Source: Nannobrachium achirus (taxonomy: Eukaryota > Chordata > Actinopteri > Myctophiformes > Myctophidae). Taken from it: DNA of 64,000 nt. Below, piece by piece: positions 245-54,205 of this stretch. Positions within the stretch are counted from its first letter, which is position 1. Every line of letters starts with the position of its first letter. The notes beneath the pieces were generated by a model. The model saw only the letters and a program-made list of their open reading frames with translations. It was not told the DNA's origin and made no database searches. Location of the stretch: the NCBI GenBank assembly GCA_963921795.1, contig OY997655.1:12642730-12706729 (forward strand). The letters are read 5' to 3'. The position numbers and the translations under genes were made by a program.

Positions 245-556
245 TCCAATTTGGTATTAAAAAGGTCCTTTTAAGTAATTAAGTGTACCTCAATGTACCT
301 TTAGAAATACCTCTAAAGTGACAAATTAAACATAGGCCAAATTGTCAAATATTAGAGGCAGAAATTGTGAAAATAGACGATCTACATGGTCACAACGCCA
401 CGCAACGCGAGGCGTTGTGAGCATGTAGATCTGCTATTTCCACAATAGCACCGTGTTATACAAAATGTAATGCCTCAACTCTTAGTGCTCGTCAGGGGTC
501 ACCAGTTAAAACATCATTATGTTGGGGGTCACGGCCTGAAAAGGGTGAGAACCACG
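245..556 (-). mobile_element. hAT-like MITE, family B, truncated, with internal hairpin
   Basis: The right end reads into GAGAACCAC, the reverse complement of the family B terminus GTGGTTCTC. The interior carries the family B hairpin at 365-446, with mirrored flanks TTGTGAAAATAG and CTATTTCCACAA. The left terminus is missing. The complete copy at 45435-46245 defines the family. Confidence 0.6.
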
Positions 557-858
557 GGGTTACACCACTGGTGGCGATACCACAATCCTGACGAAATGCA
601 TGAAAAGCAGCCACATGAAAGAGCCTGACAGGGATCAGAGAGGAGGGGGTGGGCAGCAGCACCCATGGGAGACACAGACACATGGTTCCCTGACAGGAGA
701 GACTTTCATGAGAGACAGGACTTATTTATCCACACATTATAGCTTATTTTTAATCCTTTGAATAGACATCTAGAACCGTTTCTGAATAGATATTGTCCAT
801 TTAGCATTATATATACATGTTGTGGGGAAATGGATGCATTAATAGATCGCGGTAGGCA
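557..858. other. No recognised feature
   Basis: Apart from a short TTACACCACTGG motif like the family F terminus near 560, nothing is identifiable. Confidence 0.35.
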
Positions 859-1569
859 AACTTAGGCACGGGTGCCAACATTGGCACAGCGGAGGGTAAT
901 CACTGGCTCACTGGCGTAAGTCTGAGGGAGAGGATTTTTGGTTTAAAATAAAACCATTCGTTTTGTATTTATCATTTAAAAAATGAACTAAACTAGTGAA
1001 AACAAAACAGCCTATCTACAAGCACACAACGCATCACGGTGCGAGGCTTTGGTGTGCTGGTAGATCTGCTGTTTTCACTACTTTTGTGCAACAGCCTTGT
1101 ATGATGAAGCAGGGCTTTACTTGCGAAAGAACATACACATTTGAAACTTGGAGATACAAGGTTTCCACCCGACAACGACGATATATATAAATAAAACAAG
1201 TCACATCTGTATGCAAATTCTGAACTCTGACTGGTTAGGAAGTCTGGTTTATTCCTCTGTGTCTAGTGTACTGTAAAAGAGGATGGGACCTTAGATTAAC
1301 CTACTATTTCTATGCATTTGATGTTGATGTACTGATGATGTATTACCTTGCTTATTGTAAATCGCTCTGGATTAAGAGTGTCTGCTAAATGCTTAAATTG
1401 TAAAGTGCAATGTCCTGATGTGAATATTTTAAAAGGAAAAAGGAAAAAAGGTTATTTATAGACAATCCAAATCTGTTGGACATATTTTTGATAATTATTG
1501 ATGTGGCACAGTGACTATCAAGAAAATGAAAACATGGCACTTCATGTCAAAAAAGGTTGCTGACCCCTG
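859..1569 (+). mobile_element. hAT-like MITE, family G, with nested family D piece
   Basis: The left part carries the family G signature GGTGCCAACATTGGCAC. The right end is AAAAAGGTTGCTGACCCCTG, an hAT-like terminus. A family D segment (about 953-1192, ending in CCCGACAACGACGATATA) sits inside, with its own hairpin at 991-1083. Other family G copies lie at 6796-7126, 53165-53420 and 57940-58272. Confidence 0.6.
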
Positions 1570-1703
1570 CATTAGATAGTATGTGTACCAATTTTATTCC
1601 TTCCTGACACTCATACTCATAACTTGGTCGGCCGATGCCGAGTACCGTTCCCATACCAGTGTGTAATGTAAAAAAAGAAAATCTGGTTTGTATTTGTAAC
1701 TCC

Positions 1704-2016
1704 CTGAGTATACAAATGGAACCAAATTGACCTCTTCCTTACATCCTTCACAGGTGTTACCAATCTAACTATTCATTTACCGAATGTCTGTCTGTCTGTC
1801 TGTCTGTCTGTCTGTCTGTCTGTCTGTCTGTCTGTCTGTCGAGAAAGACTGACAAACAGACAGACGTCCGTCCGTCCGTCCGTCCGTCCGTCCGTCCGTC
1901 CGTCCGTCCGTCCGTCCGTCCGTCCGTTTGAGTGTTTCCATTGAGCCAACAACATGCAAAAATATCAGCACCCTGACTAGAATGGAACAGAGCCTTCGTT
2001 AGTGTCATTGGTAACA
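1704..2016. repeat. Inverted-repeat element hosting a two-phase microsatellite
   Basis: AGGTGTTACCAAT near 1753 and ATTGGTAACACCT near 2005 are inverted copies. They bracket (GTCT)n at 1785-1840, a short mirrored linker and (GTCC)n at 1866-1927. A half copy of the second palindrome type (ACAAATGGAACCAAAT) lies just left, near 1712. Confidence 0.55.
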
Positions 2017-2205
2017 CCTACAACTGTGGCGGAAAAAAGGCCCAATTTCTTTGCAATAAATATGGCTGCTGTGCATAAAGCCTAATATTCAAATAATTTG
2101 AAATTCATAGCGAAACATAGGCTACAGATGACAACTGCAAAGCAGGGATACATGACAGATATAGAAAGCGTGTGTGCGCCCGCACAGAAATGCGCGCACA
2201 TGCAC

Positions 2206-2260
2206 GCACGCACACACACACACACACACACACACACACACACACACACACACACACACC
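2206..2260. repeat. (CA)n microsatellite
   Basis: An uninterrupted CA dinucleotide tract. Open frames across it are repeat artefacts. Confidence 0.95.
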
Positions 2261-3220
2261 ACCAGCGCTGCAGCCATCATCATCATTTCATTATGAGCAA
2301 CCTTGTCTTTAATCTTTATCGATATCAAACAGCTACACGTCTAATGATTATAACATTTGGCACGGCGGCCTGTTTTATGTTCATGAAGGCTACTCCAGTA
2401 GCCTACTCACCACTGTTTGGACGCTCTGCGTGCGAAGTCATCCATAATAATCCATTCCTTTCCAACTTCATCATTTGATAACATCGTCAATCGACAGCAG
2501 GCCATCTTTTTTATCCATTGCCACAAATTATTTATTGATAATTTGGAGACTGCACCTTGTCTGGCTTGCGACAGGAGCTGCTTGGGAGCTCATAAAAGCC
2601 TTGCAAACTTGACTAAAGAACATAATACTCAGCTAGGCCTAAATGTCTTTGACAGCAGTTTAGTTTAATTCCTTGTTCCTTGTTGTTTTTGAGCTCCACA
2701 CTGCTGTGTTTAAGTCCTGTTTGTGTTCAGAGCACTGTGTCAACAAGTGATTATGATATCATATGGAGTTTCCCAACTAAGCTCTAAATGTGAATGCGTC
2801 AGGGTAGGGATAAGTTCATTCACTTGAGGTGGTAAAGAAGACAGTCTGGTTGGTGGTTTATGTTTTTAACGGTTTCACTCACTTTCACTGTTTCACAGTC
2901 CTACTACGACCCATATCTGCCACAACAACAACTCTGCACTGACTGAGTGCACTCTCTCCAGCACTGTTGCCAGATTCTGTGAGAAGGTATAAGCAACTGC
3001 AGCCAGGGCTATGAAACCAAGCACTTTAAACCTATTCACCTTATTCCAATCCTGGCCCATTGCCTTTTACAGAGGGCACCATTGATTTTTTTCTCTGCGT
3101 GCTGATTCATTCAACATCTTCTCACTTCCTCCCTAGTAAAGAAGTGAACAGGGAATTGTGCGTTGCCAGATTTAGCTAAAGAAACAAGCGGTCAGGTCTA
3201 TGAAAATTACATTGGTTAGT
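2261..3220. other. No recognised feature
   Basis: Unique-looking sequence without convincing coding potential. The short open frames have no recognisable domains. Confidence 0.35.
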
Positions 3221-3274
3221 TGAAAATAGCAGATCAGCCAGCTCACAATGTGTCACATTGCGGCATACCTTATA

Positions 3275-52545: not shown

Positions 52546-52739
52546 AGCCTGATCATCATCCAACCCTACAAGCCCTCCTGCTCACTCAGATCAGCCAACA
52601 CAAGGAAGCTGTCTGAACCTTCTCTAAAAAAGAAATCCGGGACGACAACGCTCCACACGTCCCAGACTCTCTTCTCCCTCCTGGCTCCCAAACTGTGGAA
52701 GGAACTTCCCCCATTGCAGTCAGAACCACCGTAATCAAA

Positions 52740-53150
52740 GGGGCACGATGGCACCTACAGTCGGTAGCGCTGTCGCCTCACAGCTAGAAGGTCCTGGGTT
52801 CGATTCCCACCGGGGGACGCTGGGGGTGTGTTCTCTCCTCCGCGTCATCAGTGCCCACACCCTATAGGTGGGGTTGGTGAAAGGGCCTTTCTGTGTGGTG
52901 TTTGCACATGTTCTCCCCGTGTCTCCTATGGTAGATACCCTCACAAAAACAAGCAATAACCCTGGTCTCTATAATCCCCCCCCCCTCCCCCTGTCAGGTG
53001 ATAAGAAGTGGCCTGCTCACTCCTCATACATTGAAGGAATAATGAGCTCAGTTCGGGGCTCTCCCCAGGTGTGGCAGAGGGAGAGCGGGGCCCAGTATTA
53101 CAGCTCAGGCAATTGGCACTGGATGAAAAATGGGTTACAAAATCATACAT
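52740..53150 (+). mobile_element. tRNA-derived SINE, copy 3 of 3
   Basis: Head GGCACGATGGCACCTACAGT and B box GGGTTCGATTCCC; the body shares CCTTTCTGTGTGG and TTCTCCCCGTGTCTCCTA with the copies at 30115 and 32235. Confidence 0.85.
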
Positions 53151-53164
53151 TTTAACGACACCCC

Positions 53165-53420
53165 ATCAAAAATTCCGACATATTTTGATTGTCAGTTTAT
53201 AATGATCATTAGACTCAGAGCAATAACCCACCTATCTCCCCAACTCCCTCCACAGTCAAAGTTCGGGGTTTTAATGAATGTAGAATTATGTGCAGGATGT
53301 AATTTGTGCAAATTGGGTGACTTCATTTTCTCTCACACACTTCTGCCAATGTGCCAGTGATCACCCTCCACTGTGCCAATGTTGGCACCCGTGCCTAATT
53401 TAGCCTCGCCCTGCACTACA
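53165..53420 (-). mobile_element. hAT-like MITE family G, reverse
   Basis: Contains GTGCCAATGTTGGCACCCGT, the inverted family G left end, preceded by body sequence shared with 57960-58270. Confidence 0.6.
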
Positions 53421-53449
53421 CTGTCAAACTCTGCACGACACTGTCCCTC

Positions 53450-53506
53450 TAAATAGCCGATCTACACCGCTCACGTTGTGTGCTTGTAGATCTGCTATTT
53501 TCACCA
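53450..53506. repeat. Short hairpin copy
   Basis: Arms AAATAGCCGATCTACA and TGTAGATCTGCTATTT with a reduced centre, in an hAT-like context ending GGTTTGAGATCCACTG near 53668. Confidence 0.7.
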
Positions 53507-53730
53507 TGTGTATCTGTGTAATCGAGTCAAACTAAATGTAATGCCATAACTCCTACAATTTCGAGGGTGGGAGATCCTGCAGTTCAAATATGATTATTTT
53601 GGGATGTCCCTGATTCAGATACAATGATTTTGGGTGGGTCGCTGCCTGAAAGGTTTGAGATCCACTGTGAGCGTGAGCTTAATTCTCAAATACCTGGAAC
53701 GCGCCCGAGTCGCATTAGATTTGAACCACT

Positions 53731-54205
53731 TTAACCATTATTTTATGCTTTAACTATCAAAAAATAGCAGATATACAAGCTCACAGCGCGGCACCAAGTG
53801 CCGCGCTGCGAGCTTGTAGATCTGCTATTTTTGAAAAATCATGAAAATGTTTGCAAGTCTTTGAATATCCTTGACACGATCTTTGACCCGACTTCTAAAT
53901 CCTTCTTCTAAATCAGTGGTTCTCAAACTTTTTCATCTCAAGGACCCCCAAAATTACAGGTATTTGGCCACAGACTCTCATCTCAAAATATGTTGTTCCA
54001 GGGACCCCCCAGAAGCAGATATTTGAGTTACAAAAGTCTGCTTTGAAAAATATATATTGAAAAATGTGCACACATTTTCACGATTTTTCAAAAATAGCAG
54101 ATCTACAAGCTCGCAGCACGGCACTCGGTGCCGCGCTGTGAGCTTGTATATCTGCTATTTTTCACTGGTTAAAGCAGTCAATAATTTTAGGCCTAAATGG
54201 GTTAA
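53731..54205 (-). mobile_element. MITE family A abutting a grin2c donor, two hairpins
   Basis: TTAA at both ends (53731 and 54202). Hairpins at 53757-53835 and 54086-54165. The element's terminal TTAA begins 8 bases inside the intron that follows the 54214-54367 exon. Confidence 0.8.

What the first reader, a model, noticed from the sequence alone, without database searches (positions are those of the whole stretch)
365..54165. One palindromic hairpin module shared by at least six otherwise unrelated MITE families
About 32 two-armed copies of a 60-90 bp near-perfect hairpin share the core AGCAGATCTACAAGCTCACA and its inverse. Positions: 365-446, 991-1083, 3398-3478, 3950-4030, 4372-4430, 9187-9262, 9654-9741, 10005-10072, 10938-11016, 17212-17288, 18612-18655, 19952-20031, 22524-22602, 23254-23336, 23788-23881, 26504-26585, 27521-27613, 28496-28563, 29278-29347, 41852-41920, 42712-42780, 42969-43047, 43458-43528, 43743-43822, 46051-46128, 47113-47190, 49163-49238, 51992-52070, 52411-52490, 53450-53506, 53757-53835, 54086-54165. 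The hosts have different termini (hAT-like CAGTGGTTCTC, CAGGGGTCTTC and CAGTGGTGG; TTAA-flanked; TCGTCGTTGTCGGG), so common descent of whole elements does not explain the sharing. Possibilities: a mobile hairpin that targets existing inverted repeats, a part captured repeatedly during MITE birth, or a selected structure that helps transposition. I do not recognise it as described.
Basis: partly seen in the sequence, partly recalled or inferred. Interest (0 to 1): 0.88.

Follow-up and report, generated by a model that had tools for sequence, protein, structure and literature searches.

The report
Hairpin passenger in unrelated fish transposons
An 80-base DNA hairpin, present in several hundred thousand copies in this genome, sits inside small jumping elements of at least two and probably three different transposition classes, so it seems to spread by riding on elements that are not related to one another.

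Summary
Of the 32 listed stretches, 31 fold far better than shuffles (z -3.9 or lower). The core and its inverse occur 585,695 times (two mismatches allowed) in the 1.66-Gb genome; the reversed control finds 1. The shared module is about 77-83 bp with sharp edges. Its hosts are mostly short elements with different target duplications: 8 bp (hAT-like) and TA (the TCGTCGTTGTCGGG family), and probably TTAA. Flanks fall into at least six groups with no detectable similarity. A stem asymmetry (A arm/C arm) recurs across groups, so the two-armed hairpin has one origin.

In the two groups with both counts, short forms are rare and mostly ragged (91 against 6,626; 88 against 1,502). The tip occurs in both orientations. 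One copy has a single-copy left flank.

Best reading: a dispersed palindromic repeat captured once by each of several element lineages and amplified by their transposases. How it was captured is not shown. Targeting of pre-existing inverted repeats is not supported beyond about 5 bp.

The parts
365..446 (.). hairpin, group GC, AGACGATC/AGCAGATC arms
   Evidence: z -14.5
991..1083 (.). hairpin, group GB
   Evidence: z -7.6
3398..3478 (.). decayed hairpin, group GA (c74 flank)
   Evidence: z -2.4, weakest
3895..4468 (+). host with AACCCATTTAG ... CTAAATGGGTT ends, TAAA on both sides, two subterminal hairpins
3950..4030 (.). hairpin 1 of the 3895-4468 host
   Evidence: z -11.4
4372..4430 (.). hairpin 2 of the 3895-4468 host, tip shortened
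   Evidence: z -7.2
8940..9400 (+). hAT-like host CAGGGGTCTTCAAC ... GTTGAAGACCCCTG, flanks agree at 6 of 8 bases
9187..9262 (.). hairpin in the 8940-9400 host, itself between inner TTAACCACTTGAA-type ends
   Evidence: z -13.0
9654..9741 (.). very diverged hairpin
   Evidence: z -4.5
9938..10341 (+). GF host (TAGGGACGTGCAGA ... TGTGCACATGCATG in this copy), flanks agree at 7 of 8 bases
10005..10072 (.). hairpin in the GF host
   Evidence: z -7.9
10938..11016 (.). hairpin, c7/c11 flanks (GA-like on one side)
   Evidence: z -12.3
17212..17288 (.). hairpin, group GF
   Evidence: z -9.9
18612..18655 (.). hairpin with most of the tip and one arm deleted
   Evidence: z -4.4
19876..20133 (+). GB host TCGTCGTTGTCGGG ..., TA on both sides
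19952..20031 (.). hairpin in a GB host
   Evidence: z -17.0
22524..22602 (.). hairpin, group GF
   Evidence: z -11.6
23178..23430 (+). GB host, TA on both sides
23254..23336 (.). hairpin in a GB host
   Evidence: z -10.8
23532..24030 (+). larger host CAGGGACGTGCTGG ... CCAGCACGTCCCTG, 8 of 8 duplication CCTGAACT, enclosing the GB element 23684-23956
23684..23956 (-). GB element nested in 23532-24030; AA on both sides
23788..23881 (.). hairpin in the nested GB element, with a short insertion in one arm
   Evidence: z -13.7, two loops
26504..26585 (.). hairpin, group GC
   Evidence: z -15.9
27521..27613 (.). hairpin, group GC
   Evidence: z -18.6
28393..28637 (-). GB host, AA on both sides
28496..28563 (.). 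hairpin in a GB host
   Evidence: z -9.5
29090..29492 (+). hAT-like host CAGGGGTCTTCAAC, flanks agree at 6 of 8 bases
29278..29347 (.). hairpin in the 29090-29492 host
   Evidence: z -8.3
41852..41920 (.). hairpin, group GF, one arm partly lost
   Evidence: z -11.0
42712..42780 (.). hairpin, group GA (F3)
   Evidence: z -13.5
42969..43047 (.). hairpin whose 117-bp left flank is single copy in the genome (right flank not tested)
   Evidence: z -5.6
43458..43528 (.). hairpin, group GA (F3)
   Evidence: z -9.0
43743..43822 (.). hairpin, group GA (F3)
   Evidence: z -12.8
45435..46245 (+). hAT-like host CAGCGGTTCTCAAC ... ATTGAGAACCACTG, 8 of 8 duplication CTGTAGGT, enclosing a GC hairpin
46051..46128 (.). 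hairpin, group GC
   Evidence: z -10.0
47113..47190 (.). diverged hairpin (c72/c17 flanks), next to a single F3-type arm at 47243
   Evidence: z -5.5, two loops
49163..49238 (.). decayed hairpin, group GA (c25 flank)
   Evidence: z -3.9, two loops
51992..52070 (.). hairpin, group GA (F3)
   Evidence: z -13.6
52411..52490 (.). hairpin, group GA (F3)
   Evidence: z -11.8
53450..53506 (.). short hairpin; one flank lies in the mixed flank cluster 0 and resembles GC by eye
   Evidence: z -7.4
53757..53835 (.). hairpin, group GA (F3)
   Evidence: z -15.4
54086..54165 (.). hairpin, group GA (F3)
   Evidence: z -13.2

Best explanation
The hairpin is an old dispersed palindromic repeat of about 80 bp that entered several non-autonomous DNA transposon lineages separately, about once per lineage and before each lineage expanded, and has since been multiplied as a passenger by their different transposases. 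Shown: one two-armed hairpin shared by hosts with unrelated flanks and at least two target-duplication classes; in the two groups with both counts full forms far outnumber short ones, and the short ones are mostly ragged. Inferred: that entry was by templated capture during gap repair or founding of the element. Transposition of the hairpin itself is the main alternative for that step. Tip deletions and tips in both orientations point to an extruding, break-prone hairpin, which fits capture by repair but does not prove it.
For: Sharp module edge: over 56 of 81 flank clusters (those with an intact A-run; clusters are not independent) the information per position is 0.91 bit at -1 and 0.25 bit or less beyond -5. 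Flanks: 27 of 2,850 pairs of 76 cluster representatives exceed the reversed-sequence control and join clusters into groups; several of the 27 are overlapping or tandem arms of one locus. Target duplications around hairpin-bearing hosts: 8 of 8 bases in L016, L036, window 45435 and window 23532; 7 of 8 in L037 and window 9938; TA on both sides in 6 of 10 GB elements, which by their outer flanks are 4 of about 7 independent insertions. Same hairpin: identity between groups 0.75 over 61 bp against 0.27 shuffled; an A arm and a C arm are paired in copies of GB, GC, GD, GE, GF, GH and some GA. Integral: GB 91 short against 6,626 full; GC 88 against 1,502; spacers in between were not counted. Of 79 two-armed copies, 71 were assigned to named groups by rule. 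A copy with single-copy left flank exists.
Against: Chance capture does not say why the same hairpin was taken several times; no other shared module was looked for. Fifteen of 91 GB short forms (GATTTAAACTACTTTTGTGCGAC) are exactly what an empty site with a CTA duplication would look like, and 4 of 88 GC short forms (GCAGAAATAGAAC) are what one with an AT duplication would look like; both would favour transposition of the hairpin. Several hosts are nested (hAT around the TTAA-type core; hAT around GB), so the number of independent acquisitions is below the number of host families. In GA, 30 of 36 copies have A on both arms, so the A/C marker is rare there. Deep divergence of one ancestor with strongly constrained arms is not excluded.
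Confidence: 0.48

Rival explanations
1. The hairpin is itself a transposable element, a fully palindromic unit of about 80 bp moved by an unknown transposase (possibly with a TA, CTA or AT target), and it jumped into each host family.
For: GB reads ACTA|GTGAAAAC ... GTTTTCAC|TACTTTT, and 15 of 91 short forms equal the predicted empty site; 4 of 88 in GC equal one with AT. A copy lies beside single-copy DNA on its left. The module has sharp edges.
Against: No consistent duplication across groups: GA and GF copies give none by eye, and no single GE copy has TA on both sides. The copy at 42969 shows no duplication by eye. Most short forms in GB, GC and GF are different remnants; the commonest in GC (about 18 of 88) is a deletion between AATAG repeats, one of them inside the module.
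Confidence: 0.25
2. All hosts descend from one very old element that carried the hairpin; flanks diverged beyond recognition while the arms were constrained.
For: Within group GA, flanks are only weakly alignable while the hairpins remain similar; two deep relatives of GB keep half-hairpins, by eye. Outer arms are better conserved between groups (0.86) than the tip (0.56), though the arm figure is inflated by the search threshold. The TTAA class is not firm.
Against: Hosts have 8-bp and TA target duplications, which implies different transposase superfamilies. The A/C mismatch and other uncompensated differences persist, so arms are not kept strictly paired.
Confidence: 0.14
3. The hairpin is a selected structure that helps transposition or protects the element, so different lineages converged on keeping it.
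For: 14 of 37 stem pairs show changes on both sides among 13 chosen copies; 0 of 500 shuffles reach this. Full forms outnumber short ones 73 to 1 in GB and 17 to 1 in GC.
Against: Template-switch correction of palindromes also makes paired changes (recalled). Family-wide mismatches are tolerated. Of seven 1-kb stretches downstream of hAT domains, five hold no arm better than 6 mismatches, and in two the hairpin lies beyond what looks, by eye, like the end of the element.
Confidence: 0.1

Closest known systems
Repetitive hairpin-forming elements of mitochondrial genomes (yeast GC clusters, Allomyces double hairpin elements, sponge RHE; PMC2800124, passages and section 23 read)
   Same: Short dispersed palindromes of uncertain mobility, some without target duplications.
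   Different: Those are organellar, in intergenic regions or genes; this one is nuclear, far more numerous and sits inside DNA transposons.
MITEs of the hAT superfamily
   Same: Several hosts are short, with terminal inverted repeats and 8-bp duplications.
   Different: The hairpin is internal, and the same one occurs in a TA family and a probable TTAA family.
Foldback elements (PMC2955051, passages read)
   Same: Palindromic modules that vary in arrangement within a family.
   Different: There the palindromes are termini of over 400 bp in one family; here an 80-bp internal module is shared by unrelated families.
Hairpin-associated microinversions (PMC3123225, passages read; Kelchner and Wendel 1996 seen only in its reference list)
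   Same: Loop sequence found in both orientations within fixed arms.
   Different: Here it is seen among many copies of a nuclear repeat.

Membership tests
hAT-type MITE (hosts of groups GA2, GC, GF, GH) | 8-bp target duplication with CAG/TAG-type terminal inverted repeats | tested here: met
   end pairs by flank agreement: CAGGGGTCTTCAAC 8 pairs (8/8 one, 7/8 one, 6/8 four, 4/8 two); CAGTGGTTCTCAA 5 pairs (8/8 two, 7/8 one, 4/8 and 3/8 one each; one 8/8 and the 7/8 hold no intact hairpin); TAGGGATGGGAC 1 pair 8/8; CAGGGACGTGCA 5 pairs (8/8 two, one of these AGAGAGAG without hairpin; 7/8, 6/8, 2/8)
hAT-type MITE (group GE, TAGGGCTGTCAC) | 8-bp target duplication | tested here: inconclusive
   5 pairs: the hairpin-bearing L010 and L029 show 8-bp direct repeats only with one or two bases of offset; L038 8/8 without hairpin; two look unrelated
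hAT-type MITE (all) | mobilised by a hAT transposase | not testable with these tools
   hAT dimerisation domains abound: 150 scored of 1,653 candidates; no host was tied to one
TA-target MITE (GB) | TA on both sides of TCGTCGTTGTCGGG inverted repeats | tested here: met
   6 of 10 elements TA/TA, 2 AA/AA, 2 mixed; several share one larger host, so about 4 of 7 independent insertions; the boundary was set after looking at the flanks
piggyBac-like TTAA MITE (F3) | TTAA on both sides | tested here: inconclusive
   single ends often read TTAACCC; of 6 end pairs none has TTAA abutting CCC/GGG exactly on both sides; L017, L037 and window 3895 have it within 0-3 bases, L010 on one side only, two pairs look unrelated; transposase not tested
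Autonomous mobile hairpin | empty site with duplication | tested here: inconclusive
   15 of 91 in GB and 4 of 88 in GC fit, the other short forms and GF are heterogeneous
Known structured RNA | match to an Rfam family at gathering score | tested here: not met
   0 matches in the window

The most novel reading that the evidence does not exclude
A nuclear mobile hairpin that is a parasite of parasites: a palindrome of about 80 bp that enters or seeds MITE families of different transposase superfamilies again and again and thereby reaches several hundred thousand copies.
Probability: 0.3. Interest if true: 0.85.

Novelty: new variant of a known kind. Interest (0 to 1): 0.62.

Why it matters
How MITE families arise, and why some succeed, is an open question. 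One identical passenger in families of different target-duplication classes gives a natural experiment: the same module in different vehicles, with thousands of copies in at least two of them, from which capture, loss and inversion of a DNA hairpin in an animal nucleus can be counted.

Tried and rejected
Empty sites: short forms were sought genome-wide in GB, GC and GF and in GD (no match, but the full form was not counted, so it says nothing). In the sampled sequence 160 places matched a flank without a detected arm; the part I could see held deletion forms, arms past the threshold and unrelated repeats. Pre-existing palindromic targets: rejected beyond about 5 bp. Structured RNA: none. Autonomous carrier: seven 1-kb stretches behind hAT domains, no carrier recognised; 5' ends and piggyBac-type transposases were not searched. 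A half-hairpin match at 58555 in another repeat aligns with hairpin-free relatives without an inserted stretch. Species: not determined; a pipefish assembly considered does not fit (7,391 scaffolds, start of abstract in listing). Literature: searches were read as listings; three papers by passages, one of them also one section; the 20-mer is in no paper held. No repeat database was available, so absence from print is not claimed.

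
Full report
What is there. The core AGCAGATCTACAAGCTCACA and its inverse occur 35 and 36 times in the window at 5 or fewer mismatches, against 1.6 in shuffles. 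All 32 reported intervals were folded; 31 have z -3.9 or lower and 28 form one stem with z below -3. The window is C18:12642730-12706729 of a 1.66-Gb genome, in which the core matches 585,695 times at 2 or fewer mismatches, evenly on both strands, with a control of 1. In 200 kb sampled at twenty places there are 101 arms at 5 or fewer mismatches, which would scale to roughly 800,000 arms (inference).

Shape and edges. Of 79 two-armed copies in the sequence held, 44 measure exactly 61 bp from AGC to GCT, 25 are shorter (by eye mostly loss at the tip) and 10 longer. Over 56 of 81 flank clusters, those with an intact A-run, conservation outside the core continues through the A-run and a G and fades within about 5-8 bases, so the module is about 77-83 bp. 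Among 13 chosen copies (some groups twice) 91% of pair cells are standard pairs and 14 of 37 pairs have changes on both sides, more than any of 500 shuffles; the shuffles do not remove relatedness, and copies were picked for length.

Hosts. Flanks of 237 arms were clustered: 29 clusters of two or more and 52 singletons; cluster 0, the largest, mixes F3 and GC flanks by single linkage. Comparing 76 of the 81 clusters by up to six members each, 27 of 2,850 pairs scored above the highest reversed control; some of these are neighbouring arms of one locus, the others merge clusters into groups that I call GA to GH. Of 79 two-armed copies 71 were assigned to these groups by rule, 4 of them by a fallback rule that misplaces at least L004:1946 (groups drawn by hand). 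The host ends were tested by looking for matching flanks. Hosts beginning CAGGGGTCTTCAAC, CAG(T/C)GGTTCTCAA, TAGGGATGGGAC and CAGGGACGTGCA have 8-bp duplications in the best copies, weaker agreement in others (all pairs are listed in the membership test). The two GE hosts (TAGGGCTGTCAC) show 8-bp direct repeats only if one or two bases of offset are allowed. The TCGTCGTTGTCGGG elements of 192-273 bp are flanked by TA in 6 of 10; because some share a larger host these are about 4 of 7 independent insertions. The AACCCATTTAG elements often have TTAA at a single end, but of six end pairs none has it exactly on both sides and three have it within 0-3 bases, so TTAA is likely and not proved. Some hosts are nested: the CAGGGGTCTTCAAC elements enclose an inner region with TTAACCACTTGAACC-type ends around the hairpin, and the GB element at 23684-23956 lies in a hAT-like element with an 8 of 8 duplication. 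At least two separate entries are needed on duplication class alone (TA, and hAT hosts whose flanks reach the hairpin directly), three if TTAA is accepted, and at least six if unrelated flanks are counted.

One origin of the hairpin. Between groups the 61-bp modules agree at 75% on average, within groups at 93%, and shuffles at 27% (42 copies; arms were selected at 75% or more, the tip was not). One arm often reads AGCAGATC and the other AGCCGATC; this mismatch occurs in GB (6 of 13), GC (3 of 4), GD (1 of 2), GE (2 of 3), GF (4 of 5, one of them with a broken arm, so 3), GG (1 of 2), GH (1 of 2) and rarely in GA (3 of 36; 30 have A on both arms). So a two-armed ancestor was probably shared, and arms were not rebuilt from one side at each entry.

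Loss and inversion. In GB, spacers of 0-20 bp occur 91 times and of 65-95 bp 6,626 times. In GC, 0-25 bp 88 times and 75-105 bp 1,502 times. Lengths in between were not counted. GF short forms number 44, full forms were not counted. The short forms are mostly different remnants of the stem. The exceptions tell against me: 15 of 91 in GB are one identical form as an empty site with a CTA duplication would be, which is also the deletion expected between the ACTA repeats at the base; 4 of 88 in GC fit an empty site with an AT duplication. In GC the commonest short form (about 18 of 88, seven of them in one local cluster on C18) keeps the left GTGAAAATAG and is a deletion between AATAG repeats. 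In GC the three-base tip was GTT in 15 and AAC in 15 of 34 copied matches, not associated with the arm base (p 0.72); with the C arm on the left, exact matches number 181 for GTT and 262 for AAC. In GB the ratio was 34 to 9 among the 46 of 85 pasted copies whose inner stem was intact. Two old sublineages are an alternative to repeated inversion.

Free copies. The 117 bp left of the hairpin at 42969-43047 match only themselves in the genome. The right side was not tested, and this copy is old, so it shows that a hairpin can lie away from a multi-copy host on at least one side; no target duplication was seen. Arms have also become minisatellites in two places.

Reading. The hairpin is best seen as a passenger that several element lineages took up and amplified. 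Its sharing across target-duplication classes speaks against simple descent of whole hosts from one transposon. Whether it moved by itself or was captured during repair is not decided. Its very large copy number would follow from the success of its vehicles.

Noticed in passing
G000 C7:62678722-62785602: An exact GC-type match recurs ten times at spacings of about 11.4-12.0 kb (one more at 62825311), which suggests a tandem array of units of about 12 kb.
   Followed up: no
L039 (C1:3707700-3709000), 364-915: A 45-bp minisatellite of 12.4 copies that contains one hairpin arm; L003 holds a 25-bp tandem of AGCAGATCTACAAGCTGTAAGTCAC-like units.
   Followed up: partly
G000 C18:13080170-13253607: Seven copies of one short GC form within about 170 kb, probably a local duplication.
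   Followed up: no
window 30861-31928: An uninterrupted 355-codon frame that reads like a kelch-repeat protein, by eye only.
   Followed up: no
window 12631-17097 and 46311-46703: Frames that look like exons of a glutamate receptor subunit, by eye only.
   Followed up: no
L028 1885-2132: A hairpin split at its tip by about 200 bp ending in AATCAATCAATCAAA, perhaps a retroposon inserted in the loop.
   Followed up: no
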